Virus record (IMG/VR): IMGVR_UViG_3300033993_001613
Coordinates: 1 to 30,949 of that record
From: a virus
Strand: one strand, 5' to 3'
DNA length: 30,949 nt
Part shown: positions 2,807 to 28,520 of the stretch, piece after piece
Layout: the number at the start of each line of letters is the position of its first letter
How positions within the stretch are numbered: position 1 is the stretch's first letter
Position numbers and translations under genes: made by a program
Notes under the pieces: model-generated
The model's input: the letters and a program-made list of their open reading frames with translations, nothing else
What the model was told of the DNA's origin: nothing
Database searches by the model: none

Positions 2807-2996
2807 CTGCGGCAAATCAAGGGTAAAAATTTGTTTTATTCTAGAACTCCAGCTCGTGCTGGAGCTCCGCGCTCGCCGAGCTGATGAGGCGGGATTGCTA
2901 CCCCCTGCCGCACCCTTTCCTGCACACCCTATGCGGGGAAGAGGTGTCCCTGCGTGCCTTCCTATCACACCCCTAAAAGAGGTTTACGATTGAGGT
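2807..2996. other. Non-coding stretch with hairpins and recurring words
   Basis: The stretch holds GGGTAAAAAT (2821-2830), a perfect hairpin CTCCAGC-TCGT-GCTGGAG (2847-2864), the palindrome GGAGCTCC (2861-2868), GCGCTCGC (2869-2876) and TTCCTGCA (2917-2924). The hairpin lacks a T-run after it, so it is not a standard terminator. TACGAT at 2985-2990 sits 6 bases before the next ATG and may be a -10 giving a nearly leaderless transcript; no good -35 is seen. Confidence 0.5.
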
Positions 2997-10413: not shown

Positions 10414-12171
10414 GTGGCTGTATTCAAGAAAGATGAACCACAGGAGCCAGTAAAGGCTGCACCTAAGGCAAAGTCTAATTCTACTCGTCGTCCTCGGACT
10501 AATCGCTCCCGTCAGGTTGTAGCGCCAACACCAACACCATCAGGCATTCTTTCAGTTTTTACAACTAACACTCCTGCCTCATCTGCTGCATACAACGTTC
10601 CTCGTTCTCTTACTGCAGCAGCAGTTCAAGTTAAAGTAAATGACAAAGGCGAGTTTGAACAATTTAAAAATCGCAGAAGTGCATCTTCTAGCGCATGGCA
10701 AGCAGAAGCTTGGGAATACTACGACGCAATTGGTGAAATTAAATACGCATTTAATCTTGTTGCATCTGTTGTCTCACGCATTCGCATTTACGCAGCAGCA
10801 ATTGATGATGCTTCGCAAGCTCCAGTTTCAGTAAACGAATCTCGAGTTATTGAAGAGCGTCTTGCATCTGCCGCAGAGCGTGCACTAGAACGCCTTAACT
10901 CTGCATATGGAGGACAAGCAGGTCTTCTTAAGGATGCAGCACTAAATCTTTCTGTTGCTGGTGAATGCTATTTAGTACAAATGCCAGCACGTCCAGGAAC
11001 TGGAACACCAGAGTCTTGGGATGTTCGCTCTGTAGATGAAGTTGTTACAGATGCACGTGGTGGTTTCAATGTTATTGGTCGTCGTGAACAAGGTGCAGGA
11101 CAAGGTGGCGGTGCATCATTTGGAGTAAGTAGACTTCAAAAGAATGCATTCGTAGGACGCATTTGGCGTTCACACCCACGCTTTTCTGATGAAGCAGATT
11201 CATCACTTCGCGGTCTACTAGATCTTTGCGCAGAACTTCTTCTCCTCAACAGAACATTCCGTGCAACTGCACGCTCTCGTCTCAATGCAGGAGCACTTTA
11301 TCTTCCAGATGGACTTTCTGTTGCAGCACAAGGTGACCCAGACTATCCATACGATTCAGAAGACGGTCTTGGTTCAGGTTTCACTGCTGAAGAAGCAGAA
11401 GATGAATTTGAAGAGCAACTTATCGATGCGATGACAACTCCGATTCGCGATGAAGAATCTGCGAGCGCCGTTGTTCCTCTCATCATTCGTGGACCTGCAG
11501 AACTTGGCGACAAGATTAAGCAGTTCAAGTTTGAGCGTTCATTCGACCCAGCACTTGCTGAGCGTTCAGACCGTGTACTAGAGCGCATCCTTCAGGGACT
11601 AGATGTTCCAAAGGATGTTGTAACAGGTCTTGCAAATGTTAAGTACTCAAACGCATTGCAAATTGACGAAGCACTTTACAAAGCACACATCGAGCCATTG
11701 ATGCTTTTGATTTGTGACTCTTTGACTGTTGTTTACCTTCGTCCATATCTTCTTGCAAATGGATTCACAGAGTCTGAAGTAAACCGTCTTACTGTTTGGT
11801 ATGACCCATCAGCGGTTTCAACTCGAAACGACCGTGCTGCAGATGCAGATGCTGGCTTTGACCGCATGGCAATCTCTGGCGATACATGGCGTCGTGCACA
11901 TGGATTCTCTGACCAAGATGCACCAACTCCAACAGAAGTTGCACTTCGACTTCTACAAGAGCGTGGAGCAATTACTCCAGAACTCACAGAAGCAATGCTT
12001 AAGGCAGTAGCTCCTGAAGTTATGGAAGCAGTTCAAGCAGTAAGCCAAGAGTCTTCTGTTGCTCCAATGTCTCCAGAACTACAAAACCTTCTTGATGGTG
12101 CAATTGGAGAAGCTCCAGCAGCAACACCTACCGAAGAACCAGCACCTGCAACCGAGGAGGTTCAGCAGTAA
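10414..12171 (+). CDS. Portal protein
   Basis: GTG at 10414 with GAAGGG upstream opens a 585-residue protein. After a basic Pro/Thr-rich N-terminus (1-70), residues about 90-135 (AWEYYDAIGEIKYAFNLVAS, then VVSRIRIYAAAID) and about 385-480 (LERILQGLDVPKDVVTGLAN and ALYKAHIEPLMLLICDSLTV) are typical of actinophage portals, as is RRAHGFSDQDAPTPTEVALR near the C-terminus. The tail is Ala/Pro/Glu-rich. As the dodecameric vertex ring it would carry DNA into the head and join the tail. Its place before the protease and capsid genes fits. The gene below starts directly after its stop. Confidence 0.85.
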   Translation: MAVFKKDEPQEPVKAAPKAKSNSTRRPRTNRSRQVVAPTPTPSGILSVFTTNTPASSAAYNVPRSLTAAAVQVKVNDKGEFEQFKNRRSASSSAWQAEAWEYYDAIGEIKYAFNLVASVVSRIRIYAAAIDDASQAPVSVNESRVIEERLASAAERALERLNSAYGGQAGLLKDAALNLSVAGECYLVQMPARPGTGTPESWDVRSVDEVVTDARGGFNVIGRREQGAGQGGGASFGVSRLQKNAFVGRIWRSHPRFSDEADSSLRGLLDLCAELLLLNRTFRATARSRLNAGALYLPDGLSVAAQGDPDYPYDSEDGLGSGFTAEEAEDEFEEQLIDAMTTPIRDEESASAVVPLIIRGPAELGDKIKQFKFERSFDPALAERSDRVLERILQGLDVPKDVVTGLANVKYSNALQIDEALYKAHIEPLMLLICDSLTVVYLRPYLLANGFTESEVNRLTVWYDPSAVSTRNDRAADADAGFDRMAISGDTWRRAHGFSDQDAPTPTEVALRLLQERGAITPELTEAMLKAVAPEVMEAVQAVSQESSVAPMSPELQNLLDGAIGEAPAATPTEEPAPATEEVQQ

Positions 12172-13653
12172 ATGGCTGAAGAGACTTGCCCTCCAGCAAC
12201 ACAGGATATTGCACTTAATCTTGACAACCGCAAGAAGGCAATTGATAGTGCAATGTATGGACCACTTAACCCTGCAGAACCAAACGAAGAGTATTGGACT
12301 GCACTAGGCGCTGAGTGGGGCGTTGATGTAGAAACTGCAAAGAAACAACGTTGTGGCAACTGTGCTGTCTTTATTCAAACTCCAGAGATGCTCTCTTGCA
12401 TTGAAAGCGGTTTGACAGATAACGCAGATGAGTTTGATTCAATCAACGAAGCTGGCGAACTTGGTTACTGCGAAGCATTTGATTTTAAGTGTGCATCAGC
12501 ACGCACATGCCGTGCTTGGGTTGCTGGCGGTCCAGTAGTTGCTGCAGTTGACATTATTGACGAAGTGGAACCAATCACCGCTGCACAAGGTCCTTGCTGG
12601 GACGGTTACGTCCAAGTAGGAATGAAAAAAGGCAAAGACGGAAAGATGGTTCCAAACTGTGTACCAAAAGATTCTTCAGATGCGAGTGAATTTGCAAAGC
12701 GCACTATCTCTCAAACTCCTGCTCCTAAAAAAGACCGTATCAAAGGTTCTGATAAAAATTCAAAGGGCTCAGCTTCAGGCGGTAAGAAAATCACTTTTAC
12801 TCCTGCGATTGAGTCTTCTCTTCAAAAGAAAGTCGCAGAGCACAACGAGAAGGCACCAAAGGGTCGCAAGACAACTGTTGCCACACTCAAGGCGGTCTAC
12901 CGTAGGGGTGCAGGAGCCTATTCCGTATCTCATCGACCTGGGATGACACGCAATCAGTGGGCGATGGGTCGTGTTAACGCATTCCTTCGTTTGCTTAAGT
13001 CTGGTAAGCCAGCAAATTCTGCATACAAGGCAGATAATGATTTGCTACCAGCAGCGCATCCAAAATCTACAAAGAAGAGTTCTTCCACAATTACTGCATC
13101 TGGTTTGATTCCAGAAGAGCGAGACCTAGCAGAAGCACTCATTGCTATTACTCAGAAGCATGGTCCATTTGACCAAGATGGTGATGGTGTTTGGGCTGGC
13201 TACACACCTGCTTATGAAAACGATGTCAAAGACATTGGAGTCAAGTGTGCAAACTGCGTATTCTTCCAAGGACCAAACAAATGCCAAATTATTTCTCTTG
13301 AAGTTGAAGCAGATGGTAAGTGCCGTTTTGCTGTTCTTCCAGAAGGTGCAGTTTCTGGTTACGACGTTCCAGTTCGTGACAAAGAAGATTTAGACCTACT
13401 TCTTGCATCTGCAGTTGCAGAAGCAGAACTTAATGTTGAATTAAAGTCTGAAGAAGAGTACGAAACTCCAGAACAAGCAATCTTTGCTATGACAGAATTT
13501 GCAGGTCTAGGTTACGAAACCGAACCTGCTTTCCGTGCTGCTTGGCTTCGTGCAGTTCGCAACAATGAGAACCCATTCAAGCGAGCATCTGTTCTTGCAG
13601 TAATGACATACGACAGCATGGACTCAGACCTTCTGCCGAAAAGGAAGAACTAG
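12172..13653 (+). CDS. Cys-rich multidomain head-region protein, 493 aa
   Basis: ATG at 12172 is adjacent to the portal stop and follows GAGGAGG (12154-12160). Residues about 60-125 hold a cluster of at least six cysteines (CGNCAVF, LSC, YCEAFDFKCASARTCRAWV), followed by PCWDGYVQVGMKKGKDGKMV and PNCVP. Residues about 200-285 carry a domain common in phages (LKAVYRRGAGAYSVSHRPGM, TRNQWAMGRVNAFLR). Residues about 325-400 have DQDGDGVWAGYTP and a second Cys cluster (KCANCVFFQ, KCQII, GKCRFAV), a loose repeat of the first. The cysteines suggest zinc or iron-sulfur sites. NDLLPAAHPKSTK (289-301) is shared with the giant protein next door. It occupies the slot of a MuF-like minor head protein. Confidence 0.75.
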   Translation: MAEETCPPATQDIALNLDNRKKAIDSAMYGPLNPAEPNEEYWTALGAEWGVDVETAKKQRCGNCAVFIQTPEMLSCIESGLTDNADEFDSINEAGELGYCEAFDFKCASARTCRAWVAGGPVVAAVDIIDEVEPITAAQGPCWDGYVQVGMKKGKDGKMVPNCVPKDSSDASEFAKRTISQTPAPKKDRIKGSDKNSKGSASGGKKITFTPAIESSLQKKVAEHNEKAPKGRKTTVATLKAVYRRGAGAYSVSHRPGMTRNQWAMGRVNAFLRLLKSGKPANSAYKADNDLLPAAHPKSTKKSSSTITASGLIPEERDLAEALIAITQKHGPFDQDGDGVWAGYTPAYENDVKDIGVKCANCVFFQGPNKCQIISLEVEADGKCRFAVLPEGAVSGYDVPVRDKEDLDLLLASAVAEAELNVELKSEEEYETPEQAIFAMTEFAGLGYETEPAFRAAWLRAVRNNENPFKRASVLAVMTYDSMDSDLLPKRKN

Positions 13654-13655: not shown

Positions 13656-16600
13656 ATGGCTAAAAACGAATCTGCCAAGAGCAAAGTACAGGTACCCGTT
13701 CTTTCTTACGAAGAGCAAAACAAGAGAATTATTGATGCTGGCCTTGAGCTAGTAAAAGAATCTAACTCTAAGTTCTCTGGCTCTCGAATCATCACACGTC
13801 GTGCTGCTCTTGCTGTTCTTAACCGCTCACTTAGCAAGTATGAAGGTGAGTCTTACTCTCTTCGCCGTATTCGTTCAATCAAAGAGCTAAACAACTACAT
13901 CAAACTTGCTCAATACAACAAGGTTTTTTCAACTACTGTAGAAAATACAGACCTACTTCCAGTTTCACACCCACGCTCTACTCGTAAGCATGAACTAAGC
14001 ACCGCTGAGTTGATGCGTTTCCGCGCTCGGTGGATTTGCGATGACCCTCACATTCAAGATGACACTGTTAGAACAGTTCTTGCTTCTGCATTAACTGCTC
14101 ACCCAGCATCTCCTGAGTACGAATACTCAATTGCTCGTTTGCAATCAATGCCTCAAGGTTCAATCCCTCAGTATGCACTTCTAGCAGCCTTGGGTGATGG
14201 AAACTCATCTGCTGCTCGTCGTGCTCGTGCAATGCGTCAGCGCCGTGACCGTAAGGGTCGCTTTGCTTACATGGGCGGAGGACTTCGTGCATTTGTTCGT
14301 CGTGTAAATGGTGCTATTCAGTCTTTAACTGGTCGTAGCGTTGCAACTGATGAAAACAGTGACACCTTTGATATGGAATTGCCAAATGGTGATTTGGTTC
14401 GTGTTCCAGCAAAGTCTGCTGAAGGTGTAAAGGCGATTCTTAAGTCTGCTCAAGGTCCAGATGGATACAGCAAGACAAATGCAAAGGTTAAAACAGGCGA
14501 CCCTGTTATCGAAGAAGCAGATCTTGTAAAGATTGATGCTCCTGCAGGATTTAGCAAAGATGAAAGCTGGTCACCTAACGATAACGACGTAGAGTTTTAT
14601 GGAACCAAGATTGACCTTGGAACTAAGTACACAGATGATGCTTACGATGTCATTAAGATTTCAACTCCTAATGCTGCAGCAAAAGATAAGTTTGAAGCTG
14701 CTCAGCAAAGAGAAAACGAAGGACAGAATGTTGTTACAGAGGGTGCAGGAAAGAATGGCTCTCTAGACCCTAATCTTCCTGTTTACTTTGTATCTCGCCG
14801 TGGAGAAGATGACAACAAGCCTTTTGCTGTTGCACAGCGTTGGTCTGATGTTCAAGATTACATCTCACAAGATGAGCCAAAGTTTGAGAAGGGTGACCTC
14901 CCAGACCCAACAAAGATGGCTGAAGATACAGAAGAAGCCGAAACTCCAGAGGCAACTCCTGCAGAAGGTCTTGAAGGCCAACTCATTCCTAAGGTTGGAA
15001 AATCAGCTCTTAAGAAAGAGATGAAGCAGTACAAAAAAGATTTAAAGGATTACGAAGAAAACGGTGGACTCTTCCCACTTGACCCAAGTAAAGATCACAT
15101 CGTTCTTCCTGATGGTTCTGTCGTAGACGCTGAGACTGGTGAACTCGAAAGAGATGCATCTGGAAACTCTGCAAAGAAGCCAGCAGCACCTGCTGCTCCT
15201 GCTAGTGAAAAGCCTGAAGAGTTTGACGTACCTGAAGGTGCATACAAGATGGACCCAGAACCTTATGTCCCACAGGGTGCAGGTCCTGATGTTGAATCTA
15301 AAGACTACACAGATGACCCTGCAGAACTTGCTCAAAAGTTTGACGAGGAAGAAATTACCTCTGCACTAGAAGAGTCTCTTGAAGGTGACGGAACTGCTCA
15401 ACTTCCATTTGAGAATGGTGACGAGTCTGTTCCTGCTGAATCACTTCGTGACACTCTTGGTGAACTTGGAAAAGATATTGGTGCCGCTGTAAAGAAGGCA
15501 TACTCAAAGATTAAGGCAAAGCTTGCTGGAGATAAGGGAGAACAAACTCCTGAAGTTCCACAAGATGTAAAAGACGAGCTTGGAAAAGAGATTCCAGAAG
15601 CTCCTATGCCTTCTGCAGAAGCAGACCCAGCAAAACTTCCTGCACTGCTTGATGGTTTGTCAGACGATGAGAAGGACGAGTACGCCAAGACTGGTGATTA
15701 CGCAAAGCATCTTCCACAGAACACCGAGTTTGAAGTGCCAGATGGTTATAGCATCCTAGATACAAATCCATTTAACAAGGACCTTTACCCACTTCCAGAG
15801 GATGCTCCAGAAGGATTTACTTTTGACCCTCTAGACATTGCAAATAACTACGACACAGAAGATTTGAAGAATGAACTACGCCGTGGCATTGAGCCAGGTG
15901 GAGATGGTTATGGAATTCTTTCCCAAGAAACAGAGACAGGTGAAGACTACAAGGGCTACGTTCCTGTAGAAGCAATCCGTGATGCTCTGCAATTGCAAGG
16001 TGAAGATACCGACAGCTTGATTGATGGTATCTACAAAGAAGGCATTTCAGGTCAAGAAGATTCTGAAATTACTCCAACAGAAATCAGTGACGCTCTAGAA
16101 GGAGAAGATACTGAAACACCAGAAGGAACCCCAACACCTCAAGAAGAAGTCCCTGCCGAAAGCACGGAACAAGCTACGACGAATGAAGCGGGACCCCAAA
16201 CCGTTACCAACGTTAACGTCGGAGAACCAACAGGACCAGCAAAGCTAAAAGCTAAGACTTCTGAACTTAAAGCAGGAGACGTTACAACTAACGACTTCTT
16301 TACAATTGAGTCTGTTGAACCTTCTGAAATTCCAGGAAAATCTTGGGTCACTGGTTACTACCCAGGTCACGTTTCTCAAAAGACAAAGTTGTGGAACAAC
16401 GACACTGATATTTCTGTATTTAGAAATGTTGATGGTCCTACAAAGGGTGACCTTCCAGTTCTTTCAAAGCCAAAGGCAAAAGAGTATGACCCTGAAGGTA
16501 AGGTTTACAAAGATAAGAACCTTGACCTTTGGGTTCCAAAAGATGCAGAGGCTCGTAGCAAGTATCTAGATGCTGTTGACCAGTACAACAAAGACCTTGC

Positions 16601-19600
16601 CGCTGCTAAGGAAATGTGGTCTGCACCTGAGAATGTTGAAGAATGGAACACAGAATCTGAAGCACCTGTTTACGACCCAACTAAGAACACTGTTGGTGTA
16701 GTTGATGTTGCTGCTACTGAAGTAAAGCCAGGAGACATTGCCTTCAAGAAAGAAGGAAAGAATGACTTCTACGAATACTTCATTGTTCAAGACGTTACAA
16801 CTGATGAAAACGGTAATGCTGTAATCACTGGTTACTATCCAGACCACCAGTCTCAATCAAAGAGCTGGAAGGGTACAACTCCTATCAAGGTAATCCGTGG
16901 AGCTTCCTCTCTTCCAGAGCCAGGAAAGAAGCCAGCACTTGAGCGTCCAAAGAAGGACGACGCTGATTACAAGCAAAAGTATGCAGACTTTAATGCAGCA
17001 AAGAAGGAATCTGCTGCAACATTTACTCCTCCAATTGATGTAGATGCATTACCAGCTGCACCAAAGAAGGTTTCTCGCCCAACTCCTCCTGCATTCATGG
17101 GAGATAAGCTCAAGGCAATTGCTGCAGAGGCAAATGGCGACCCAGTTAAGTTTAAAGAACTTCTTGCAAATGAAGAAGTAGTTCACCTTGACTTCGAATC
17201 AACTGGAGGCTTTACAGCTCCAAGTCCAATTCAAGTTTCGATGACCAAGATGAAGAACGGTGAAATCGTCGAGCAGAAGACGCTTTTCATGAATCCAGAG
17301 CAACCATTGGATTCCTTCTACACAGATAAAGATCCAAAGGACATTCTTAAGGATGCAGATGGAAATCCAATTTCCGATGAGTTCCTTTCAAAGCAGATGT
17401 CTCAGCAAGATGCATTTAACGAGATTGCTGACTTCCTTGGTGCAAACCCAATCGTTTCTGCACACAACATGCCTTTTGATGGTGAAATCCTTCGACGCAA
17501 GATGGCTGAGTATGGACTTGATTACAAGCCATCAGGTGAGATTGACACACTCTCGCTTGCTCGGAAGGTAATTAATGGAAGCGCTGGCGACCACAAACTT
17601 GAGGCTGTAGCAAACCGTTACGGACTAGCAGAGCCAAATACAGATTGGCACGATGCTTCTGTTGACGTTGCTGTATTGCCTGGAATTCTTGACAACCTTC
17701 TTGATGAAATGGCTGTCACAAAGTCTGGCATTGATGTTCTTGACATTGACAAGAGCCAAGCAGATTACGACAAGGCTAAGGCAGAGTACGACGCTTACAA
17801 GAATCCAAAGGCTAAGGCTGATTCAGAACTTGTTATGGCAAAGACTTTTGCAGATGGTATGGCTGGAAAAGAGATTCCAGAAGACCCAGAGGTACTTGCA
17901 AAGGCTCTTCCAAAGGACAAGCCAACATCAGACGAGCTTTCCCCTGCAACTACTCCAAAGGCAACAGAAGTTGGCGACGGAGACTTCGAAATCGAATCAG
18001 TTCTTGGTGGAAACATTTCTAACAACTGGGTATCAGACCCAGAGAACACAACAAATGTTGGTTCAATCGCTGTTGAAGAGTGGCAACCAGGTGACTTCAT
18101 CAAGGCTAAGCATGATGGATTCCACGAAATCATCTCTATCACTCCTATCGATGGAGATGACAAGCGTGTACTAGTTAAGCGCAGACTTCTTGCAACTGGA
18201 AAAGAATACGAATCTGCTTGGGTTAAGTACCAAGCTTACGAAGTATGGCGTCGCAACAGCGAGCCAGATGCTGTTCCAGAACCAGAACCAGAATTAGAAC
18301 AACCACAACTTGAAATTGATGATGCTCCTGAGAAGGAAGCAAACGCTGGTAAGTGGGCTGACTACAACATTGCAGAAGGTACTGATGGTGTCTTCTACGC
18401 AGAAAACATTTCTGCTGCAGATGTTCAAGCACTTCGCAACGGAAGTTTGACTCCTCCAAAGCTTCCATTCTTTGCACCTCTTGGTGGCGGAAGCAATCAG
18501 GAAACTGGTGAAGGTTATTTCTTTACAACAGATGGTAAGCGCTTCTGGGGTAAGTACGGTGCTGGTGGTGCATTGCTTCGTCGTAAGAACGCAGATGGAG
18601 AGTACGAGTACTTCCTAGCAAAGCGTTCATCTAGCCTTTCACAAGGTGGAGGCAAGTGGGGCATTCCAGGTGGAGCTCACAAAGACCAAACAATTGCTAA
18701 GGCACCTAACGCCACAGCAAAAGAAGAGTTTATGGAAGAAGTTGGTGGAGATATCTCTGCCTTCGAACCAATCTACGTCGACACAAACAAAGTTGGCGCT
18801 GAATGGGCGTACGAAACTTCTGTCTTCGAAGTAGGACCAGACCAGTTCAACGACCTATCTAGCAAGGATGGCGAGAACACAGCAACTGGTTGGTTTACTG
18901 GAGACCAAATCAACAAGATGTCTGATGCAGGAATGTTGCATCCAGACTTCGCAGACTCTTTCCCAAACATTGTTAGCAACCTTGAAGATGAGGATGCAAA
19001 GACTGACAAGCCAATTCCAGCAGAAGAAGTTTCTCCTGAAGATGTAACTTCAGTATTTGATACTTCTAAGTGGAAGAAGGTTGCAGGACAAGCTGGCTCC
19101 AATCAAGGTGCTTTCTATGTAGACCCAGACACTGGAAATCAGTATTACGTTAAGAAGCCAAAGTCTGACAAGCATGCAGAGAATGAAATCTTAGGCGGTG
19201 CTCTTTATGAAGAGGCTGGCGTTAAGTTTGGTCGTGCATACAAGGGTGTAGACAAGAGTGGAAACACTGTTCTTGTTTCTCCAGTTTTAGATGGAAATAC
19301 TCTTGCATCTGACAAGAACAATGCAGATTTAAAGAAGAAGGCTCAGGCTGACTTCGCAGTTGACGCATGGCTTGGTAACTACGATGTAGTTGGCCTTGAG
19401 TATGACAACATGCTTGTTGACAAGGATGGAAACATCGCTCGTATTGATGCTGGTGGTTCTCTACTATTCCGTGCACAGGGTGGAACTGACAAGGAGTTTG
19501 GTCCTGAAGCAACACAAGTTGACTCGATGCGTGATGCAAAGCAGAACGCACAGGCTGCAGACATCTTTGGAGATATGAGCGATGAAGAAATCGCTGAGTC

Positions 19601-22600
19601 TGTTAAAAAGGTACAAGCAATAACTCCAGAAAAGATTGATGAGCTTGTAGATGCTGCCTTCTCTGACCCAGACACTGCTGAGTCAGTTAAAGAAACTCTT
19701 AAGGCACGTCGTCAATATCTAATCGACCGTTTCTTGGGCGGACAAGCAGAAGAAACACCTGCCGAAGAGCCAAAGAAGCCAGTTGTTGATACCAATACAG
19801 TTGTTATTGATGCTGCAGGTGACATTGAAGCACAAATTACTGCTGCACAAGATGCTGGAAAGAAGATTGCGTTCAAGTACAACGGAAAAGAGAGAGTTGT
19901 AACTCCAAAGGGAGTGTGGAAGAACCCACAGAACGGCAACATTAATCTTTCAGCAATCGGTGAAGATGGTGTGAAGAAGAACTACACCCTCTCTAAGTTT
20001 GAGCAAAGTGATTCTTCTGCTACAGAAGCACCAGAGGCTGCTCCAACACCTGAGAAGGAACTTCCACAGGCACCAGAAGCTGCTCAGATTGATCCAGTTG
20101 AGAAACAAAAGGTTCTTGACGAAGTTTCAGCTCTTGCAGAAAAGCTTTTTGGTAGCAAGGGCAAGACAAAGGACCTACTTGAGTCTCTCAAGGGGCAGGA
20201 AGGCTCTAACGATGAGCTTATCGATTCAATTCTTGAGGACATCAACACTGTATCTGCTCCTGCAGATGCAACTCCTGAAGAAAAGATTCAGTCTGACCTT
20301 GCTCAAGCACTGACACCAGATGAAGATGCTGCTCCAGAAGATGAAGTGGAGCCAATCGATGCTGATGCACTTGCTGAAGAGTTAAAGAAGCCTTTAGACC
20401 CAGATTTGATTTGGGCAAAGGTTAAAGATGAGAAGGGAATCTCTGTCATCGAAAACGGTGACATTGTTGTTGCTGAGAATGTAACACCTGCTGGCTCAAC
20501 TATTTATACAATGGTGAAGCGCAACTCTGACAACACCTTTAGTGTCTATCACAGAATTAAGGGTTCTGATGGAACTACAAGAGTTAAAACTCTTGCAGGA
20601 CGTTGGCACTCATACACAGCTCTTTCTAGCCGTATTGAGAACGAGAAGTGGAAAGCAAAGGTAACTCCAAGCAAGGTTATCTCAAAATCTAAGCCAGAAA
20701 CTCCAGGAACTATCGCTCCTTCTGCAATTCCAACAAAGAAGGGTGCTTATGTATCTGCTGATGGCAAGACTCCAATTAAGGTTGGAATGATTGTCAAAGA
20801 TACTAAGACTGGTAAGACTGGAAAGGTTGTTTCACTTAAGGATGAGCTTGTTACATCTAAGAGCAAATCAAATCCACAGGGTTACACCTACACAGACGTT
20901 GCCAAGGTTCAATGGGATGATGGCAAGAAGAACTGGAAGGTTTCAACCTATCTAGATATTCAGGACACTTCAGGTGTAAAGCCTGACAAGCCAGAAGATG
21001 ATGGCCCAACTGGTGGAAGTGGTGGAACACCAACAACTCCTAAAGAGCCAACAAGTCCTGCACCTGTAAACAATCCAGAACCTGCAGTTGAACTTCCAAC
21101 TTTTGAAGGTACTGACCTTGCTGGTGCTACTGCAATCAAAGATGTTGAATCTAAAGCAGTAGAAAAAAACTCTGTTGGTCACTTAGCTGCTTATGGAGCA
21201 AATGATTACAGCGATTACAAGAGTTTTTTAAGTGGCGAGTTTATTAAAGACCCAAACTCTAAGAACATGGTTCCAGGAATTTTGGTTCAAAACGTAAGCC
21301 CAAACGATTCTGACCAAGACTTGACTAGCTACGGTGTAATTTCAAAACAAGATGCAAAAAGTGGTGAAATTTTTGTTTCATACTTTGATGGACCTCTTGC
21401 AGGACAGACTAAGAGCACAAAGTCTGACAAGTTGTGGTCCCGTGAGAAGTTTATTACTCCTGAGCAAGCAAAAGAACTAGACATTACTCTTGACCCAACA
21501 CTTTTTGACAAGTCTAAGGCTGCAGCAAAGGCTAAAGGCGAGGCTTATGCAAAGAAGCAAGCAGATGCTTTGAAGAAAGCTCAATTGGAAGCAGAAGCTA
21601 AAGCTCTAAAGGATAAGTTCTCTGTCAACGGTCCAGGTTTTGCTGTTCAAACACTAGATGCCGCACCTGACTATTCGCAATCTCCACATCCAGATGTGCC
21701 TTCACTAGAAGACTCGTTGAAGATGGCAAAGAATGACAATGCTGGAGAAGCTGCAAATGGTTCAACTACTCTTCTTGACTCAGATTCAATCGAGGACCTA
21801 GAAGTCCACGTTGGAATGGTTACAGACAAGAATGGCGAAAAGAAGATTCGTCTTCAGTTCACTTTAACTAACTGGGCTGGAAAGCAAATAGTTGCTAAAG
21901 CAGATTCTGACCCGAATGTAACTAAAACAAAAGCATTGCGTTTGGATAAGTGGGAGAAGAAGGCAGATGGTTCTCTCGTTTGGAAAGACACTTGGGATAC
22001 AAGCACAGTTGACTCAAATAAAAACGGTGTAACTTTTGAAGGACCTGCTGGAAAGGGAACTTTCCTTCTTCACAGAGCAAGTAAGTCTATTGATGATACT
22101 GAAGTGGACTTCTTTAAGTACCACAGTAGTAGTCCATACGCTGTTTCCTTCCACAACAAAGCAGAAATCTATCTTCCAGCAGATGCAACTTCTGAGGATG
22201 TAGCTGAGGCCCTTAACTCTTTGGGTGGAATCTCTCAAGTTCGTCCAGCACTTGAATCTGATGTTCAAGGTGTTATTGAAAACAAAATGATTTGGTTGCT
22301 TGGCTCTTCTACCGATGGAAAGAAGAACTACGCAGGTGAACTCCGTGAGAAGACCCTTGAGTACATTAAGGATGAATATGGATTCACAGCAGCTGATGTT
22401 GAAGTTGTCGTAGACCCACTTGCTCGTGGTCGAGTTAACTATTACATGCCAGAGTCCGCTGTAGAAAAGTTGATGGAAAAAACTGGATTCTCTCCATACA
22501 TTGTTCACAATTGGAAGGGTGGAGACCAGACCAACACTGTTGACTGGTTTTACAACGTTGTTACATCAGGAGGCGTCTACGCAACTGCTACTCGTTGGAT

Positions 22601-23000
22601 GAACGGAATTAACAAGAGCGGAATGTCTTCATCTGCAGATATTGATGCTAACGGCGGAAACTATGTTTTTGCCTCTCCATCATCTAAAGGTTCAAGCACT
22701 TCTACAAGCTTTGCTTTGTACTTCGATTCACGAAAAGTTCTTCGTCGTTTGGATTACTACAAGAACAACTCCGATAAGTATGGTCAGCTTCAATCTGACT
22801 CAGAGGATATCGTTCAGTCTCTAAGCAACAACTACGGAGAGTTGATGTTTAAGAAGAACCTTTCATGGGCAGACATTTCATCCATGTCAATGCCAGCAGC
22901 TATCCGAGAGAAGCTCATCGAGCGTCTTATGACTGAAGGTCTTACTGATTTGGCAGACATGGTTTCTGGCAAAAAGAAAAAGAAAGGGGCTAAGAAATAA
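13656..23000 (+). CDS. Giant 3114-aa polyvalent head protein
   Basis: Seen: a helical N-terminus with TDLLPVSHPRSTRKHE (98-113); acidic Pro/Glu linkers; three SH3-like modules opening K-x-GD (about 871, 1023, 1476), the first two sharing V(T)GYYPxHxSQ; a DEDDh exonuclease with LDFES (D1179, E1181), HNMPFD (D1275), H1332 and D1337; a Nudix-like segment WGIPGGAH to EEFMEEVGG (1668-1698) with a stretched, imperfect box; a HipA/PI-kinase-like domain (about 1800-2020) with YYVKKP (K1833), DVVGLEYDN (D1910, N1918) and RIDAGG (D1931); a further beta module (2249-2340), a KOW-like module (about 2360-2440) and a C-terminal region with GMSSSADID and LYFDSRKVLRRLDYY. Known: arrays of unrelated enzymes in one phage head protein are called polyvalent proteins and are thought to be injected. 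Inferred: this one acts on the host early. Confidence 0.85.
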   Translation: MAKNESAKSKVQVPVLSYEEQNKRIIDAGLELVKESNSKFSGSRIITRRAALAVLNRSLSKYEGESYSLRRIRSIKELNNYIKLAQYNKVFSTTVENTDLLPVSHPRSTRKHELSTAELMRFRARWICDDPHIQDDTVRTVLASALTAHPASPEYEYSIARLQSMPQGSIPQYALLAALGDGNSSAARRARAMRQRRDRKGRFAYMGGGLRAFVRRVNGAIQSLTGRSVATDENSDTFDMELPNGDLVRVPAKSAEGVKAILKSAQGPDGYSKTNAKVKTGDPVIEEADLVKIDAPAGFSKDESWSPNDNDVEFYGTKIDLGTKYTDDAYDVIKISTPNAAAKDKFEAAQQRENEGQNVVTEGAGKNGSLDPNLPVYFVSRRGEDDNKPFAVAQRWSDVQDYISQDEPKFEKGDLPDPTKMAEDTEEAETPEATPAEGLEGQLIPKVGKSALKKEMKQYKKDLKDYEENGGLFPLDPSKDHIVLPDGSVVDAETGELERDASGNSAKKPAAPAAPASEKPEEFDVPEGAYKMDPEPYVPQGAGPDVESKDYTDDPAELAQKFDEEEITSALEESLEGDGTAQLPFENGDESVPAESLRDTLGELGKDIGAAVKKAYSKIKAKLAGDKGEQTPEVPQDVKDELGKEIPEAPMPSAEADPAKLPALLDGLSDDEKDEYAKTGDYAKHLPQNTEFEVPDGYSILDTNPFNKDLYPLPEDAPEGFTFDPLDIANNYDTEDLKNELRRGIEPGGDGYGILSQETETGEDYKGYVPVEAIRDALQLQGEDTDSLIDGIYKEGISGQEDSEITPTEISDALEGEDTETPEGTPTPQEEVPAESTEQATTNEAGPQTVTNVNVGEPTGPAKLKAKTSELKAGDVTTNDFFTIESVEPSEIPGKSWVTGYYPGHVSQKTKLWNNDTDISVFRNVDGPTKGDLPVLSKPKAKEYDPEGKVYKDKNLDLWVPKDAEARSKYLDAVDQYNKDLAAAKEMWSAPENVEEWNTESEAPVYDPTKNTVGVVDVAATEVKPGDIAFKKEGKNDFYEYFIVQDVTTDENGNAVITGYYPDHQSQSKSWKGTTPIKVIRGASSLPEPGKKPALERPKKDDADYKQKYADFNAAKKESAATFTPPIDVDALPAAPKKVSRPTPPAFMGDKLKAIAAEANGDPVKFKELLANEEVVHLDFESTGGFTAPSPIQVSMTKMKNGEIVEQKTLFMNPEQPLDSFYTDKDPKDILKDADGNPISDEFLSKQMSQQDAFNEIADFLGANPIVSAHNMPFDGEILRRKMAEYGLDYKPSGEIDTLSLARKVINGSAGDHKLEAVANRYGLAEPNTDWHDASVDVAVLPGILDNLLDEMAVTKSGIDVLDIDKSQADYDKAKAEYDAYKNPKAKADSELVMAKTFADGMAGKEIPEDPEVLAKALPKDKPTSDELSPATTPKATEVGDGDFEIESVLGGNISNNWVSDPENTTNVGSIAVEEWQPGDFIKAKHDGFHEIISITPIDGDDKRVLVKRRLLATGKEYESAWVKYQAYEVWRRNSEPDAVPEPEPELEQPQLEIDDAPEKEANAGKWADYNIAEGTDGVFYAENISAADVQALRNGSLTPPKLPFFAPLGGGSNQETGEGYFFTTDGKRFWGKYGAGGALLRRKNADGEYEYFLAKRSSSLSQGGGKWGIPGGAHKDQTIAKAPNATAKEEFMEEVGGDISAFEPIYVDTNKVGAEWAYETSVFEVGPDQFNDLSSKDGENTATGWFTGDQINKMSDAGMLHPDFADSFPNIVSNLEDEDAKTDKPIPAEEVSPEDVTSVFDTSKWKKVAGQAGSNQGAFYVDPDTGNQYYVKKPKSDKHAENEILGGALYEEAGVKFGRAYKGVDKSGNTVLVSPVLDGNTLASDKNNADLKKKAQADFAVDAWLGNYDVVGLEYDNMLVDKDGNIARIDAGGSLLFRAQGGTDKEFGPEATQVDSMRDAKQNAQAADIFGDMSDEEIAESVKKVQAITPEKIDELVDAAFSDPDTAESVKETLKARRQYLIDRFLGGQAEETPAEEPKKPVVDTNTVVIDAAGDIEAQITAAQDAGKKIAFKYNGKERVVTPKGVWKNPQNGNINLSAIGEDGVKKNYTLSKFEQSDSSATEAPEAAPTPEKELPQAPEAAQIDPVEKQKVLDEVSALAEKLFGSKGKTKDLLESLKGQEGSNDELIDSILEDINTVSAPADATPEEKIQSDLAQALTPDEDAAPEDEVEPIDADALAEELKKPLDPDLIWAKVKDEKGISVIENGDIVVAENVTPAGSTIYTMVKRNSDNTFSVYHRIKGSDGTTRVKTLAGRWHSYTALSSRIENEKWKAKVTPSKVISKSKPETPGTIAPSAIPTKKGAYVSADGKTPIKVGMIVKDTKTGKTGKVVSLKDELVTSKSKSNPQGYTYTDVAKVQWDDGKKNWKVSTYLDIQDTSGVKPDKPEDDGPTGGSGGTPTTPKEPTSPAPVNNPEPAVELPTFEGTDLAGATAIKDVESKAVEKNSVGHLAAYGANDYSDYKSFLSGEFIKDPNSKNMVPGILVQNVSPNDSDQDLTSYGVISKQDAKSGEIFVSYFDGPLAGQTKSTKSDKLWSREKFITPEQAKELDITLDPTLFDKSKAAAKAKGEAYAKKQADALKKAQLEAEAKALKDKFSVNGPGFAVQTLDAAPDYSQSPHPDVPSLEDSLKMAKNDNAGEAANGSTTLLDSDSIEDLEVHVGMVTDKNGEKKIRLQFTLTNWAGKQIVAKADSDPNVTKTKALRLDKWEKKADGSLVWKDTWDTSTVDSNKNGVTFEGPAGKGTFLLHRASKSIDDTEVDFFKYHSSSPYAVSFHNKAEIYLPADATSEDVAEALNSLGGISQVRPALESDVQGVIENKMIWLLGSSTDGKKNYAGELREKTLEYIKDEYGFTAADVEVVVDPLARGRVNYYMPESAVEKLMEKTGFSPYIVHNWKGGDQTNTVDWFYNVVTSGGVYATATRWMNGINKSGMSSSADIDANGGNYVFASPSSKGSSTSTSFALYFDSRKVLRRLDYYKNNSDKYGQLQSDSEDIVQSLSNNYGELMFKKNLSWADISSMSMPAAIREKLIERLMTEGLTDLADMVSGKKKKKGAKK

Positions 23001-23605
23001 TGGCTCTTATCTCTGAAGAAGTAATTTTTGGGACTCCAGGTGTTATTGAAAAACTATCTGGAGAAAACCAAAGCAAATTCCCTCTATTCGATGTAGTTCA
23101 GTTTGTATATGAGGGAGACGACGATGAAGCCGATAGCGGCATCCTCGTTCGTGGAGGACGCGGCATGTTTTACCCAGTTGATCCAGAGTTAGTTAAGAAA
23201 ACCGAGGGTACAATTGAGTTTGCTGCGTTCGACGGTACCTATCGAATCAGAAAGTTCACAGAGGATGACTCTGCGCTTCTAACTGGTTATGGACTGACTC
23301 TAACCCCGCAAATGATGGAGGAAATGATGGTAATCGACGAGCAAGTCGGTTTAGAACAAGCCGTAGAGGCTTTGTCTAACGATGCTGGTGACGTCACAGC
23401 TGTTGTCTTCACGGTTGCTGGGCTTGGTACTTTCTTCCGCAACGAGGGTAAGTGGGTTCCTGCCACTCCTGAGATGTCAGAAGAGTATGACGGCTCAGAA
23501 ATCACAGACATTGATGTTGAAAAAGGAAAAGACCTCGTAGCCCGCTGGGACGCTGGTGAAAAAATTACTAAAGATAATTTAGCAGAGTACGCGGTAGAGG
23601 AATAA
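23000..23605 (+). CDS. Hypothetical acidic head-region protein, 201 aa
   Basis: ATG at 23000 shares a base with the stop of the giant gene (TAATG). The product is acidic, opening MALISEEVIFGTPGVIEKLS, with VYEGDDDEADSGILVRGGRG and LTPQMMEEMMVIDEQVGL. The middle is beta-rich (VVFTVAGLGTFFRNEGKWVP) and the end is helical and acidic. No family is recognised. Its place between the giant protein and the protease suggests a head-assembly or cargo partner. Confidence 0.7.
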   Translation: MALISEEVIFGTPGVIEKLSGENQSKFPLFDVVQFVYEGDDDEADSGILVRGGRGMFYPVDPELVKKTEGTIEFAAFDGTYRIRKFTEDDSALLTGYGLTLTPQMMEEMMVIDEQVGLEQAVEALSNDAGDVTAVVFTVAGLGTFFRNEGKWVPATPEMSEEYDGSEITDIDVEKGKDLVARWDAGEKITKDNLAEYAVEE

Positions 23606-23607: not shown

Positions 23608-26600
23608 ATGGAATTTCTAGGTAGAAACGATAATTACGTTCTCTTCTCGAACGACGACTTGGCAACAGTTATTGACGAGTCTACTAATACAGTTGTTCGG
23701 GTTGATAGCAGTGCTGTTCTACTAGCTTCTGCAGAATGGAGTACTTATGGTGAAAGACCAGAAGCTTCTTCTGTTGAGTTAGCAAACGCTGCCGTTACTG
23801 ACCTAGATATTAAAGTTCTTAGCAATGGTGATAGCAGCAATATGTACACCATTCCTGATGCTGTTGTTTCAGAAGCAAAAAGAGGACTCGCTTGGAGAAA
23901 AGAAGAAAAACGAGGTGGCACACCTGTTGGCCTGAATACTGCACGCACTCTGGCGCAGGGTGGGCAGATTGGTATCCAAAAGATTCGTCACATCGCGAAA
24001 TACTTCCCACGTCACGAAGTGGACAAGAAGGGCAAAGGCTACAAACCGGGCCAACAAAACTACCCAAGTAATGGTCGCATTGCATGGGCTCTTTGGGGTG
24101 GAGATGCTGCAAAGCGTTGGGCGTCAGCAATTGTTGAGCGCGACAATAAAAAGCGTGCAAACAATTCTGTAGTTGCATCTATCGATGAGTTTATGCCGAT
24201 AGAGCGTATTGATTACAAGTCATTTAATCCATCAGAGTACGAGCCAGATTTTTATATTCGAATTCGTTTAGATGGCTCAGGTATTGACCGTCTATACAAA
24301 GTAGATATGGAAGGTTACTGCACCGTTTGGGATGACGGCTGCTGGGAAGACCTTGGTCACATTGACCATGACTTTATTACATATGACAAGTCACTTGACG
24401 ATCCTTATGACCAAGTGCAAAAAATTCACACTCCTGTAGACCGTGAATCTGCAGTAAAGATTTCAGCGATGCTGGATAACAACCCATTTGATTCAATTTC
24501 TATTCAAATGATTGATTTCAATGAATCAGATTTGATTGAAAAAGCAATTCCAGAAATTGACTGGAAGTTCCTTGACCAGCTTTCTGAAGATGAAGTATTT
24601 GAAGTAGATGAGTGGGATGACGGCCTTCTTGCTGTAGGTGCTCCTACAACACAAGCTCCAACAAACCAAGATGGAAACTACACACCTGAAGAACGTTCAG
24701 AGAAGGCTTCTCAGCAAGTTCGTGACCAGCTAGGTAAATTTGCTAAAGCTGGAAGCACTGTGATTGTTGGAAACGACCCTAAGTACACAGGAAAAATTCT
24801 TTCTATCAACTCACAAACTCAAGAAGCAAACGTTGAGTTTCCTAATGGAAATGTCGTAGCAGTTCCAGCAAACCAAACTCAGTTGGCAGAAGATTATCAA
24901 CCTCTTCCTGTACAAGGCTTTCCAAGTTTTGAACTAGACACTTCTGGCATTCTTGGAGAACCACGAGTTCCAATTGATGAGCCAACAGCAAAACTTCCAG
25001 GACGTCTACCACCACTTACAGTAGACAGTCTTCAAACAATGCTTACTGACTGGTCTAGTTGGATGTCAGACCAAAGAGTTACTCCTGAATACACAGGACA
25101 GCCAGTAAATGCTCCAGCACCAGTTGCTGGAACTTCACCTGCTGTAGATACACGTCTTGACCCAAATACTGTTCTTGGTCAGTACTACACAGGTTCATTT
25201 AATCCAGATGGCACACCAAAGCCAGGTTGGAATCCTGCTACAACAGAAAATGTTTACAACAACCCACTACTACGTGATTGGTTGGATAAAAAGTACAACA
25301 AGAACGCATCTCCAGAAAATGCTTATCACCGAGATGGTTGGTATAAAGAAAATCCTTACGGAAAACTTGGACCTAAGGTAGAACCAAAGAAATCTGCTAA
25401 AGATGTAAGAAAAATTAGCGCAGAAGATTACATGAAGAGGTTTGATCCAGACCTTGAGATGTCAATTACCTCTTCTGCCGAGGCTAAAAAACCTAACTAT
25501 GAAATCACACCTGAAAAAACAGATGTGGCTCCTATGTACATTGCAATTGTCGCTGAGGATGACCCAGCAGCAGTGATGGAGTTAGTTGCTGTTGTTCCAG
25601 CAGGTTTCGATACAAATCAACCTTCTACTTTCAAACGCCGTGACCGTAAGTGGGTACGCGATGAAAGAATTCTTGCTGACCTAAACAGCCCAACACCTCC
25701 ACCAACTATTGTTCTAAGCACAGAACAATTGGCTGAAGTTGTTTCTCAAATTGATGGTGGAATTGTTGCTTCAATTCGAATCAACCCTGCGATGGCTCTT
25801 ACTCTTAACGCTATTACAGCTGCTGGAGGACTTGACCAAAACCGCGGTAACGCAGAGAAACTTCGCCGTTATTGGACAGTAGGTAAGGGTGGATTAAAGA
25901 TTCGTTGGAACAGCCCAGGAGACTGGACTCGTTGCCACAAGTATCTTTCAAAGTATCTTGGACCTCGCTCAAAAGGTTACTGCGCTCTTCGTCACAAAGA
26001 GATGACTGGCATGTGGCCTGGAGATAAGCGCAATCCAGGAATGAAAAAGAAGTCTATGGTTTCTAGCATTGAAGCCTTACGTTCTGAAGAACAAATTATT
26101 GATTCATTTACTCTATCTGCTCGTGCTGAAGCAGCTAAGGCTCAATTCATGGGCCGTGAAGGTGCTAAACCAGTAGAACACGGAGCAAAATTTGTTATCC
26201 CATTGGTTATTCCTGAAGACAAGGAATCTGGCGATGGTCGCATCTTTGATAAAGGTGTAATAGTTATGCGAGACCTACCTCTGCCTCTACTGTGGCAGAT
26301 TAAAACAGGTCAAGGTCACGATGGTTCCGTTGTGGTTGGTCAAATCACGCATATGGAGCGCATCGATGGTGGAATTGGAAATGCTGTAGGCGTTTTCGAT
26401 ACAGGCGAATATGGAAAAGAAGCTGAAAGGCTTGTTCGCAATGGGTTTATCCGTGGAGTATCTGCTGACATGGATATGTTTGAGGCTGATGAGGAAGAGG
26501 CTTCTGAGGACTCAGGAAAAGTAGAGGCAGGTAGAATAGTAATCAAGAATGCTCGAATTATGGCTGTCACCATTGTGCCAAAACCAGCATTCCAAGAGTG

Positions 26601-27797: not shown

Positions 27798-28520
27798 GTG
27801 ACTACAAATAGTGACGATACAGCTTCTAAAATGAGAGAAGCCATTTCTACTGCTCAAGCGGTGTTGGCTTCTGCAGAGTCAAAAAATGATAATTCTGAAA
27901 AATCAGAAGCACTTTTTAAAATTGACCCAGAACTCGAGGGTTTAACTGACGAAGAGGTAAAAGCTCTTAAGCTGGAAAAAGCCACTCGAAATAAGGAAGA
28001 AGAAGAGCGGGCTAAATACACCCCAAAGACTCAACCTCGTGACGCTGGAGGTAAATTCCGTCAAGTCCTAGCTCGACTCAAATCTGACCTAGGTACTGCT
28101 GGGTTAGACCGAGTTATCGAAAAGGTTGAAGAAGCCGAAAATCTTGATAATGCGGGAGACTACGGAAAAGCATCCAAAGCAGCTGACGATTTAATTGGAA
28201 TTATTGACCGATTGGACGCAAAAGCGTTGAATCCTGAAGCTTTAGAGAACATTCGTACTAGTTCAGCAGAGCTTGGAAAGGTTATTGCTAACCTCCCATT
28301 TGGGTTCGGTCAAGATGCTGAAAAGATTAGATTCTCTGATGTACCCCCAGCCCTACGTAAGCTAATGAAAAATATGATTACTAGGGTCGAAGACAAGATT
28401 GGCGATGAGGATGCCGATATCGCCACAGCGGAGCTAAAGAAGTTCATGTCTGGTAGCGAGCTCTACAACCAATCAGAGATTTCCAGCCAGATGGCGAAGC
28501 TTTTAAGACTTTTAACATAA
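27798..28520 (+). CDS. Helical acidic protein, candidate scaffold, 240 aa
   Basis: GTG at 27798 is two bases after the protease stop; a ribosome site is weak. The protein is highly charged and helical (AISTAQAVLASAESKNDNSE, LTDEEVKALKLEKATRNKEE), with TQPRDAGGKFRQVLARLKSD and a C-terminal helical bundle ending SEISSQMAKLLRLLT. Its place between protease and capsid genes, its size and its charge suit a scaffolding or head-assembly protein; no enzyme motif is seen. The RDxxGKF pattern is also found in the SH3 region of the protease fusion (RDQLGKFAK). Confidence 0.7.
   Translation: MTTNSDDTASKMREAISTAQAVLASAESKNDNSEKSEALFKIDPELEGLTDEEVKALKLEKATRNKEEEERAKYTPKTQPRDAGGKFRQVLARLKSDLGTAGLDRVIEKVEEAENLDNAGDYGKASKAADDLIGIIDRLDAKALNPEALENIRTSSAELGKVIANLPFGFGQDAEKIRFSDVPPALRKLMKNMITRVEDKIGDEDADIATAELKKFMSGSELYNQSEISSQMAKLLRLLT

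What the first reader, a model, noticed from the sequence alone, without database searches (positions are those of the whole stretch)
13656..23000. A 3114-residue polyvalent protein in the head gene cluster
One gene fills 30% of the window. It combines a DEDDh exonuclease with all five motif residues, a Nudix-like domain, a HipA/PI-kinase-like domain and repeated SH3-like modules, joined by acidic linkers. The mix of nuclease, nucleotide hydrolase and kinase-like parts suggests a set of anti-defence or takeover tools delivered with DNA. Its place between the portal-linked protein and the protease supports packaging in the head.
Basis: partly seen in the sequence, partly recalled or inferred. 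Interest (0 to 1): 0.75.

Follow-up and report, generated by a model that had tools for sequence, protein, structure and literature searches.

The report
Giant multi-enzyme phage head protein
A lake virus of bacteria carries one very large gene, placed among its shell-building genes, that strings several different enzymes together and is probably loaded into the virus particle and delivered into the cell with the DNA, although no delivery or activity has yet been shown.

Summary
The observation largely stands. The 3114-residue gene is exact, kept in relatives and under purifying selection. The DEDDh exonuclease, Nudix and HipA/CtkA-type kinase domains are supported, with motif residues kept across relatives. 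Two repeat pairs are real; their SH3 fold was not tested.

New points. (2) The N-terminus is a DUF5824-like domain, also present in the neighbouring gene, followed by a short RDxxG[RK]F tag also present in the protease and scaffold-like proteins; this may load the protein into the prohead. (3) The kinase is widespread: 115 non-redundant ORFs, up to 6091 aa, usually between portal and capsid genes in virus contigs. Exonuclease, Nudix and kinase change order; the DarT-like domain is last of the four wherever found (38 of 38). (4) A kinase relative in a Yersinia phage, and a Nudix protein two genes on, are annotated as particle-associated.

Best reading: a head-packaged, injected polyvalent effector. 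Polyvalent proteins are a known class (Iyer 2017); a HipA-like kinase between portal and capsid genes was noted by Benler 2021, with another interpretation. Injection and all enzyme activities remain untested.

The parts
13656..23000 (+). giant polyvalent protein, 3114 aa
   Evidence: single ORF; relatives of like length; dN/dS 0.10-0.14
13722..14003 (+). N-terminal DUF5824-like domain, about residues 23-116, ending in the DLLPxxHPxST motif
   Evidence: hhalign of giants only against DUF5824-type genes only, E 2.7e-13, 89 columns; single-sequence BLASTP with the neighbouring gene 28% over 82 residues, E 7e-5; motif at 99
14244..14264 (+). RDRKGRF tag, residues 197-203; candidate head-targeting motif
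15198..15575 (+). repeat A1 (515-640)
   Evidence: hhalign with A2, E 6.4e-15
15708..16055 (+). repeat A2 (685-800)
16239..16550 (+). repeat B1 (862-965)
   Evidence: hhalign with B2, E 4.9e-19
16683..17030 (+). repeat B2 (1010-1125)
17181..17675 (+). DEDDh exonuclease (1176-1340)
   Evidence: RNase_T 8.4e-12; PHROG 192; PolC/DnaQ structures; five catalytic residues invariant 11 of 11
18453..19025 (+). Nudix domain (1600-1790)
   Evidence: alignment of 12; 6uuf 9.3e-18; relative L013 NUDIX 3.5e-20
19053..19745 (+). HipA/CtkA-type kinase domain (1800-2030)
   Evidence: model pLDDT 88.1, CtkA Z 16.0, catalytic residues invariant 22 of 22
19782..20012 (+). WYL-like piece (2043-2119)
   Evidence: matches L013 repeats, one of which is a Pfam WYL hit
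22431..22985 (+). C-terminal DarT-like ADP-ribosyltransferase domain (2926-3110), with H2951, R2980, S2991, D2995, Y3003, E3062
   Evidence: top six structural matches all DarT, Z 6.6-4.6; Pfam DarT in 3 of 39 family members and 1.1e-5 in record G008; conservation
10414..12171 (+). portal protein
   Evidence: phrog_776 2.9e-108
12172..13653 (+). neighbour with a DUF5824 domain (12784-13044), DLLPAAHPKST motif and Cys-rich pieces
   Evidence: PF19141 8.3e-09, 1.9e-11; motif
23000..23605 (+). 201-aa protein of unknown function; its start overlaps the giant's stop by one base
23608..27795 (+). 1395-aa head protein with S78-like protease region; RDQLGKF tag at residue 372
   Evidence: phrog_859 1.5e-89; Peptidase_S78 0.0019, below cut-off; tag
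27798..28520 (+). 240-aa scaffold-like protein; RDAGGKF tag at residue 81
   Evidence: position and tag; the role as scaffold is inferred
28662..30782 (+). major capsid protein
   Evidence: phrog_777 9.1e-89

Best explanation
The gene makes a head-packaged polyvalent effector. Steps: (1) it is made with the late head genes between portal and protease (shown: position). (2) Its N-terminal DUF5824-like domain and the RDxxG[RK]F tag, both shared with co-encoded head proteins, dock it into the prohead together with scaffold and protease (inferred from sharing and position). (3) The protein, whole or cut by the head protease in its acidic linkers, leaves the capsid with the DNA (inferred; a relative is annotated as particle-associated). 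(4) In the cell the modules act in parallel: a HipA/CtkA-type kinase phosphorylates host proteins, a Nudix hydrolase removes nucleotide-diphosphate compounds such as ADP-ribose-type signals, a DEDDh exonuclease trims nucleic acid, and a C-terminal DarT-like transferase attaches ADP-ribose to DNA or another target (folds and motifs supported, the last only moderately; substrates inferred). The net effect would be early host takeover or blunting of defence.
For: Conserved position (also a phage-plasmid of another head type with a DUF935 protein, a minor head protein, a 1466-aa kinase-bearing protein annotated NUDIX, an XkdF-like protease and a capsid protein). Four folds with kept motif residues. 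Purifying selection on all four enzyme parts, dN/dS 0.01-0.15. Domain order changes among relatives: of 17 ORFs with all four domains, EXO-NUD-KIN-CART 10, KIN-EXO-NUD-CART 5, two other orders 1 each; CART last in 38 of 38. Tag in 3 of 1011 six-frame ORFs of a whole relative genome, all in the head cluster, and in 28 of 57 kinase ORFs against 0.68 expected, 23 of the 28 at residues 193-219. DUF5824-like domain in 31 of 57, always starting at residues 15-42. Yersinia phage giant, and a NUDIX protein two genes on, annotated particle-associated.
Against: No proteomics or activity for this phage; the particle-associated label is a depositor's note on a phage of a different type whose giant lacks the tag. 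Tag and N-terminal domain are each missing from about half of the complete kinase ORFs; 21 of 57 have neither, so they cannot be the only loading route. The tag pattern was chosen after seeing it in the window proteins. In bacterial genomes only 1 of 39 kinase loci has this portal type upstream. DarT assignment: Foldseek finds nothing under 0.001, Z 6.6 alone is within the noise range the tool states, the PDB profile search is empty, 1 of 100 shuffles matched the profile score. The Nudix of the Yersinia phage is not detectably close to this one. The window Nudix lacks the first glutamate of the standard box.
Confidence: 0.62

Rival explanations
1. Superinfection exclusion: the enzymes are made late in the infected cell and modify the host so that other phages cannot enter; the protein need not be packaged. 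This is the published reading of a HipA-like kinase encoded between portal and capsid genes in Gratiaviridae.
For: Late-gene position; PMC8008677 argues this for its kinase (passages).
Against: It does not explain the N-terminal domain and tag shared with head-cluster proteins or the particle-associated annotation of a relative. Fusion of four unrelated enzymes behind one head-type N-terminus fits delivery better.
Confidence: 0.15
2. Structural or assembly protein: a very long internal head protein (core, ruler or scaffold helper) in which the enzyme folds have become binding platforms.
For: Head-cluster position, acidic linkers, shared motifs with scaffold-like and protease proteins.
Against: Catalytic residues of exonuclease (11 of 11) and kinase (22 of 22) are invariant across divergent relatives; modules are lost, gained and reordered, unlike an essential ruler.
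Confidence: 0.12
3. Replication or repair aid: exonuclease (joined in a relative to UvrD helicase) and other modules process the incoming phage genome, for instance its ends, rather than attack the host.
For: Exonuclease next to UvrD helicase in L013; UvrD domains in 3 of 14 large kinase ORFs; profile relatives are DNA polymerase exonuclease subunits.
Against: Does not explain kinase, Nudix and transferase; the kinase, not the exonuclease, is the most widely kept module in this set, although the set was collected by kinase.
Confidence: 0.08

Closest known systems
Polyvalent proteins of phages and conjugative elements (Iyer et al. 2017, PMC5512222; abstract, sections 6, 9 and 32, and passages read)
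   Same: Large single polypeptides with enzymes of unrelated activity, in phages encoded near portal and other late genes, predicted to be packaged and injected; ADP-ribosyltransferases common.
   Different: The main text mentions neither HipA nor DEDD, exonuclease only in a reference title and NUDIX once; the kinases described there are a different, truncated protein kinase group. The DUF5824-plus-tag N-terminus and a C-terminal DarT-like domain were not met in the parts read.
HipA-like kinase of Gratiaviridae gut phages (Benler et al. 2021, PMC8008677; passages read)
   Same: HipA-type kinase encoded between portal and capsid genes.
   Different: Neighbours are an ATPase and a glycosyltransferase gene; no multi-enzyme giant is described in the passages; interpreted as superinfection exclusion. 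Sequence kinship with the present kinase was not tested.
Virion-packaged NAD/ADP-ribose enzymes of phages (PMC9503650; passages read)
   Same: Nudix and ADP-ribosyltransferase domains predicted to be packaged in heads and injected.
   Different: Mostly standalone or fused to head proteins; no kinase-Nudix-exonuclease-DarT chain in the passages read.
DarT of DarTG systems
   Same: Fold match and collinear H...E motif of the C-terminal domain.
   Different: Part of a giant phage protein; no Macro partner found in 25 records; DNA target unknown.
Helicobacter pylori CtkA kinase
   Same: Best fold match of the kinase domain (Z 16.0).
   Different: Only 13-17% identity; standalone bacterial kinase.
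N4 virion RNA polymerase (abstract in listing, PMC12633501)
   Same: A protein of about 3,500 residues that is packaged and expelled into the cell, so size is no bar.
   Different: Different enzyme and phage group.

Membership tests
Polyvalent proteins (Iyer 2017) | Two or more domains of disparate biochemical activity in one polypeptide | tested here: met
   exonuclease, Nudix, kinase and probable DarT-like domain in one ORF
Polyvalent proteins (Iyer 2017) | Phage members lie near portal and other virion genes | tested here: met
   portal upstream, protease and capsid protein downstream
Polyvalent proteins (Iyer 2017) | Packaged in the virion and injected | not testable with these tools
   only indirect: a relative annotated particle-associated
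Polyvalent proteins (Iyer 2017) | Frequent zincin peptidase, MuF or similar hallmark domains (common, not obligatory) | tested here: inconclusive
   none by Pfam in the window protein; of 14 large kinase ORFs, MuF in 1, Zeta_toxin in 1 and ADPrib_exo_Tox in 2
HipA/CtkA-type kinases | HipA/PI-kinase-like kinase fold | tested here: met
   CtkA Z 16.0, rmsd 3.5, 214 aligned; HipT 12.4; HipA 11.1
HipA/CtkA-type kinases | ATP-binding and catalytic residues | tested here: met
   G-loop, K, E, D, N, D invariant 22 of 22; their role is inferred from position
HipA toxins proper | HipB-type antitoxin partner and HipA N-terminal subdomain | not tested
   no search made for a partner
DEDDh exonucleases | DxE, D and HxxxxD residues in an RNase_T fold | tested here: met
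Nudix hydrolases | Nudix family similarity | tested here: met
   profile to 6uuf 9.3e-18
Nudix hydrolases | Complete Nudix box Gx5Ex7REUxEExGU | tested here: inconclusive
   GG, E1691, E1694, E1695, G1698 kept but the first E is absent and spacing is longer; L031 is closer to the standard box (box recalled)
DarT transferases | DarT-type ADP-ribosyltransferase fold | tested here: inconclusive
   top six VIA rows all DarT but Z 6.6-4.6; Foldseek none under 0.001
DarT transferases | Sequence match to the DarT family | tested here: inconclusive
   3 of 39 members, best 5.6e-4; 2 of 38 records, best 1.1e-5 at 20 bits, cut-off 22.5; hhalign E 0.006, or 0.033 with 1 of 100 shuffles as good
DarT transferases | DarG macrodomain partner | tested here: not met
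   no Macro domain in 25 of 25 records searched, many of them fragments; so it is not filed as a DarTG system

The most novel reading that the evidence does not exclude
The giants are a phage counterpart of polymorphic toxins: a head-loading cassette at the N-terminus (DUF5824-like domain plus RDxxG[RK]F tag shared with scaffold and protease), an interchangeable middle of enzymes (kinase, Nudix, exonuclease with or without helicase, others), and an often present C-terminal DarT-like transferase that marks nucleic acid with ADP-ribose on entry. The kinase would be one of the most widespread virion-delivered kinases, so far without a curated family.
Probability: 0.35. Interest if true: 0.82.

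Novelty: new variant of a known kind. Interest (0 to 1): 0.6.

Why it matters
If right, many uncultured and cultured phages deliver a kit of enzymes on one very long chain at the moment of infection, with a recognisable loading cassette. That makes two questions directly testable: which short signal loads cargo into these heads, and what a phage-delivered HipA-type kinase and a DarT-like transferase do in the first minutes of infection. The kinase gave no Pfam match in the proteins scanned and almost no PHROG match, although at least 578 viral stretches, repeats of near-identical contigs included, encode it, so annotation pipelines are likely to miss it.

Tried and rejected
Nucleotide search for the gene in phage records: no match. 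Protein search of residues 115-3114 in phage records: 30 records, none covering 80%; 11 of these match only the exonuclease part. Pfam at E up to 1: kinase, Nudix and C-terminal domain of the window protein are not matched. PDB profile searches: kinase only weak CtkA at 0.21, C-terminal domain nothing useful. PHROGs for the kinase: window 0 families, best family 3 of 22 members at 3.6e-4. BFVD fold search of the C-terminal model: best E 1.7e-3, an uncharacterised Tupanvirus protein, none under 0.001. Follow-up Pfam scan of ten chosen C-terminal members to locate the DarT hits found none of them; a record-level search then found two of 38. Idea that the proteobacterial-phage Nudix is the same Nudix: not supported in the one compared. 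Idea that all beta-rich pieces are one SH3 repeat family: rejected, only two pairs relate; self-BLAST at 0.05 found no repeats. DarTG toxin-antitoxin reading: no macrodomain partner; ADP-ribosylglycohydrolase in 1 of 25 records, the Gordonia phage. The first N-terminus comparison (E 5e-39) was inflated, because the giants' alignment had taken in DUF5824 genes (78 of 82 ORFs shared); with giants and genes kept apart E is 2.7e-13, which is the value used. The protease profile used was built by iterating on a whole 1395-aa protein and may have drifted, so I rely on the portal and capsid counts. The control that shuffled alignment columns failed once by a script error and was rerun.

Rows dropped before counts: 205 kinase ORFs were reduced to 115 at under 90% identity; the counts use viral and phage ORFs with a complete 5' end only (57); one search scanned 72 upstream ORFs of 400-1000 aa from 45 of 49 viral and phage loci; one search scanned 14 of 52 ORFs of 2000 aa or more; one search scanned the Nudix gene of 5 of the 6 proteobacterial phages whose regions I opened; one search used 18 of the 23 DarT loci. 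Some of the 115 ORFs are cut by locus ends, so lengths are lower bounds.
Full report
What is there. The window is a 30,949-base virus record. One ORF, 13656-23000 (+), codes for 3114 residues. It starts two bases after its upstream neighbour ends and overlaps the next gene by one base. Around it lie a portal protein (phrog_776, 2.9e-108), a DUF5824 protein, a 201-aa protein, a 1395-aa protein with an S78-like protease region (phrog_859, 1.5e-89; Peptidase_S78 0.0019, just below cut-off), a 240-aa protein and a capsid protein (phrog_777, 9.1e-89). Near relatives have 3114 to 3181 aa. Against three of them, overall dN/dS is 0.10-0.14. The four enzyme parts lie between 0.01 and 0.15, some non-enzyme parts equally low; several linkers are looser, one at 1.35 on 61 codons against L003 and L007. 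The gene is therefore real and kept.

The exonuclease is clear: RNase_T 8.4e-12, PHROG 192 1.2e-22, profile matches to PolC and DnaQ structures, and D1179, E1181, D1275, H1332, D1337 invariant in 11 of 11 sequences. The Nudix has no Pfam hit in the window protein, but its relative in L013 (64% identical) scores 3.5e-20 and the family profile matches the solved Nudix 6uuf at 9.3e-18. The box keeps GG, E1691, E1694, E1695 and G1698 but lacks the first glutamate and is longer (the box itself is recalled). The kinase has no Pfam hit. Its model (pLDDT 88.1) matches CtkA (Z 16.0, rmsd 3.5, 214 aligned), HipT (12.4), LepB (12.2) and HipA (11.1), and Foldseek also ranks CtkA first (4.9e-08). The residues that fit G-loop, lysine, helix-C glutamate, catalytic aspartate, asparagine and metal-binding aspartate are invariant in 22 of 22 sequences down to 28% identity.

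Repeats and linkers. Profile comparison finds two repeat pairs, 515-640 with 685-800 (E 6e-15) and 862-965 with 1010-1125 (E 5e-19); no other pair among eleven pieces relates. A piece at 2056-2119 matches one of three repeats in L013 that is a Pfam WYL hit. The acidic linkers are real. An SH3 fold was not tested.

The C-terminal domain. The model of residues 2690-3114 is fair (pLDDT 74.1). Foldseek finds nothing under 0.001, but in the second alignment pass the six best rows are all DarT, from four different proteins, Z 6.6 to 4.6, with the next unrelated row at 4.2. The tool warns that a best Z of 7-8 is common without clear relation, so this alone is weak. Independent support: 3 of 39 family members match Pfam DarT in a blind scan (best 5.6e-4; the next family 0.017), one record gives 1.1e-5 at 20 bits, under the cut-off of 22.5, and a profile comparison with 18 bacterial DarT proteins aligns 167 columns with a histidine, a glycine turn and the glutamate in register (E 0.006; kinase, Nudix and exonuclease controls 0.037, 0.54 and 0.11). 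With gap-rich columns removed, E is 0.033; 1 of 100 column shuffles scored as high, and none aligned more than 99 columns, against 165 observed. In the family, H is kept in 37 of 39, R in 38, S and D in 39, Y in 38 and E in 37. DarT uses R51 and E160 (PMC9967889, passages); the arginine conserved in the 18 DarT proteins is not in register with the one here. I put a DarT-like transferase at about 0.6 to 0.7; a DNA target is not shown. No macrodomain partner was found in 25 records.

The N-terminus. With giants (43 sequences) and DUF5824-type genes (45) kept in separate alignments, about residues 23-116 match the DUF5824 genes at E 2.7e-13 over 89 columns; the window's own two proteins share 28% over 82 residues (E 7e-5). 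An earlier figure of 5e-39 came from overlapping alignments and is withdrawn. Both end in DLLPxxHPxST. The domain is in 31 of 57 complete viral and phage kinase ORFs, always starting at residues 15-42. In Roseobacter phage CRP-823 a DUF5824 relative sits directly between the portal gene and a capsid gene. About 80 residues later comes RDRKGRF. The pattern [RK][DN]xxG[RK]F, chosen after seeing it here, also occurs in the protease protein (372) and the 240-aa protein (81) of the window. In the complete 129-kb relative DSL-LC01 it occurs in 3 of 1011 six-frame ORFs, all in the head cluster: a protein before the giant, the giant itself, and a protein annotated as capsid maturation protease. Among 57 complete viral and phage kinase ORFs, 28 carry it against 0.68 expected from shuffles, 23 of them at residues 193-219; 23 have both domain and tag, 21 neither. 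The simplest reading is a head-loading cassette; this is inference.

Relatives and shuffling. DSL-LC01, an uncultured lake phage with Actinomycetia as predicted host (PMC10611076, passages), has a 3289-aa relative in the same place. L013 has a 6091-aa one, identical in three records, with kinase, exonuclease followed by UvrD helicase, Nudix, an exoenzyme-type ADP-ribosyltransferase, WYL, KTSC (just below its cut-off) and the same C-terminal domain, in a different order from the window. The non-redundant set is 115 ORFs, 52 of at least 2000 aa and 8 of at least 5000. Of these 115, 70 show only the kinase among my four profiles and 17 show all four, in four orders (10, 5, 1, 1); the C-terminal domain is last in 38 of 38. 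Of 14 large ORFs scanned, 3 hold UvrD, 3 HD, 2 an exoenzyme-type transferase, 1 Zeta_toxin and 1 MuF.

Context. In virus contigs with room upstream, a portal relative lies upstream in 35 of 42; capsid protein lies downstream in 22 of 29. In bacterial genomes only 1 of 39 has that portal type. In a Pseudomonas phage-plasmid the order is DUF935 protein (the Mu-type portal, recalled), minor head protein, a kinase-bearing protein annotated NUDIX, XkdF-like protease, capsid protein, so the place recurs in another head type. In three Gordonia phages the kinase gene follows the portal gene, and in two of them an ADP-ribosyltransferase gene comes two genes later. In proteobacterial phages the kinase protein also bears an exoenzyme-type transferase in both that I scanned, and a NUDIX gene follows two genes on in 5 of 5 scanned, though the one compared is not detectably close to this Nudix. 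In the Yersinia phage record the giant and the NUDIX protein are both annotated as particle-associated; no paper on that phage was found in the library.

Mechanism and likelihood. I judge head packaging and injection of an effector chain most likely (0.62). Rivals are superinfection exclusion (0.15, the published reading of a HipA-like kinase between portal and capsid genes, PMC8008677, passages), a structural role (0.12) and a replication aid (0.08). Passage of so large a chain has a precedent: the abstract listed describes a ~3,500-residue RNA polymerase expelled by N4-type phages.

Known or new. Polyvalent proteins are a described class (PMC5512222; abstract, sections 6, 9, 32 and passages). 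The main text of that paper names neither HipA nor DEDD. Library searches for this combination found no description (of 22 papers only 10 were listed), but the library holds only open-licence papers. I therefore file this as a new variant of a known kind.

Noticed in passing
window 3245-3829: 194-aa protein, 46% identical over 188 columns (E 7e-59) to a DSL-LC01 protein annotated as HslV, an ATP-dependent protease subunit; a protease-subunit-like gene ahead of the head cluster.
   Followed up: partly
window 12172-13653: Two Cys-rich pieces (about residues 60-113 and 347-385) beside the DUF5824 domain; the second has weak Pfam HIPIP and DUF3716 hits. They look like metal-binding pieces.
   Followed up: no
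L007 and L139 (contig IMGVR_UViG_3300047564_003843): One 160.7-kb contig holds two different giants, 60% identical in the kinase, far apart; each seems to occur on a contig of its own as well, so the record may be a chimera.
   Followed up: partly
L060 2-14212: A 4737-aa frame (5' end open) in Actinocatenispora with NUDIX, this kinase, ADPrib_exo_Tox and a separate PI3_PI4_kinase-like piece just below cut-off, perhaps a prophage.
   Followed up: no
L082, L164, L188, L190: Four of the 115 ORFs carry two copies of the kinase domain.
   Followed up: no
L019 976-1986: Gordonia phage Mareelih codes for an ADP-ribosylglycohydrolase (5.7e-36) about 10 kb before its kinase and ADP-ribosyltransferase genes, on the other strand; a possible self-protection enzyme.
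   Followed up: partly
window 24073-24102 and about 25975-26000: The protease protein holds a GRIAWALWGG piece (residue 156) and a GYCALRHKEMTGMWPG piece (residue 790); both recur in related phages, function unknown.
   Followed up: no
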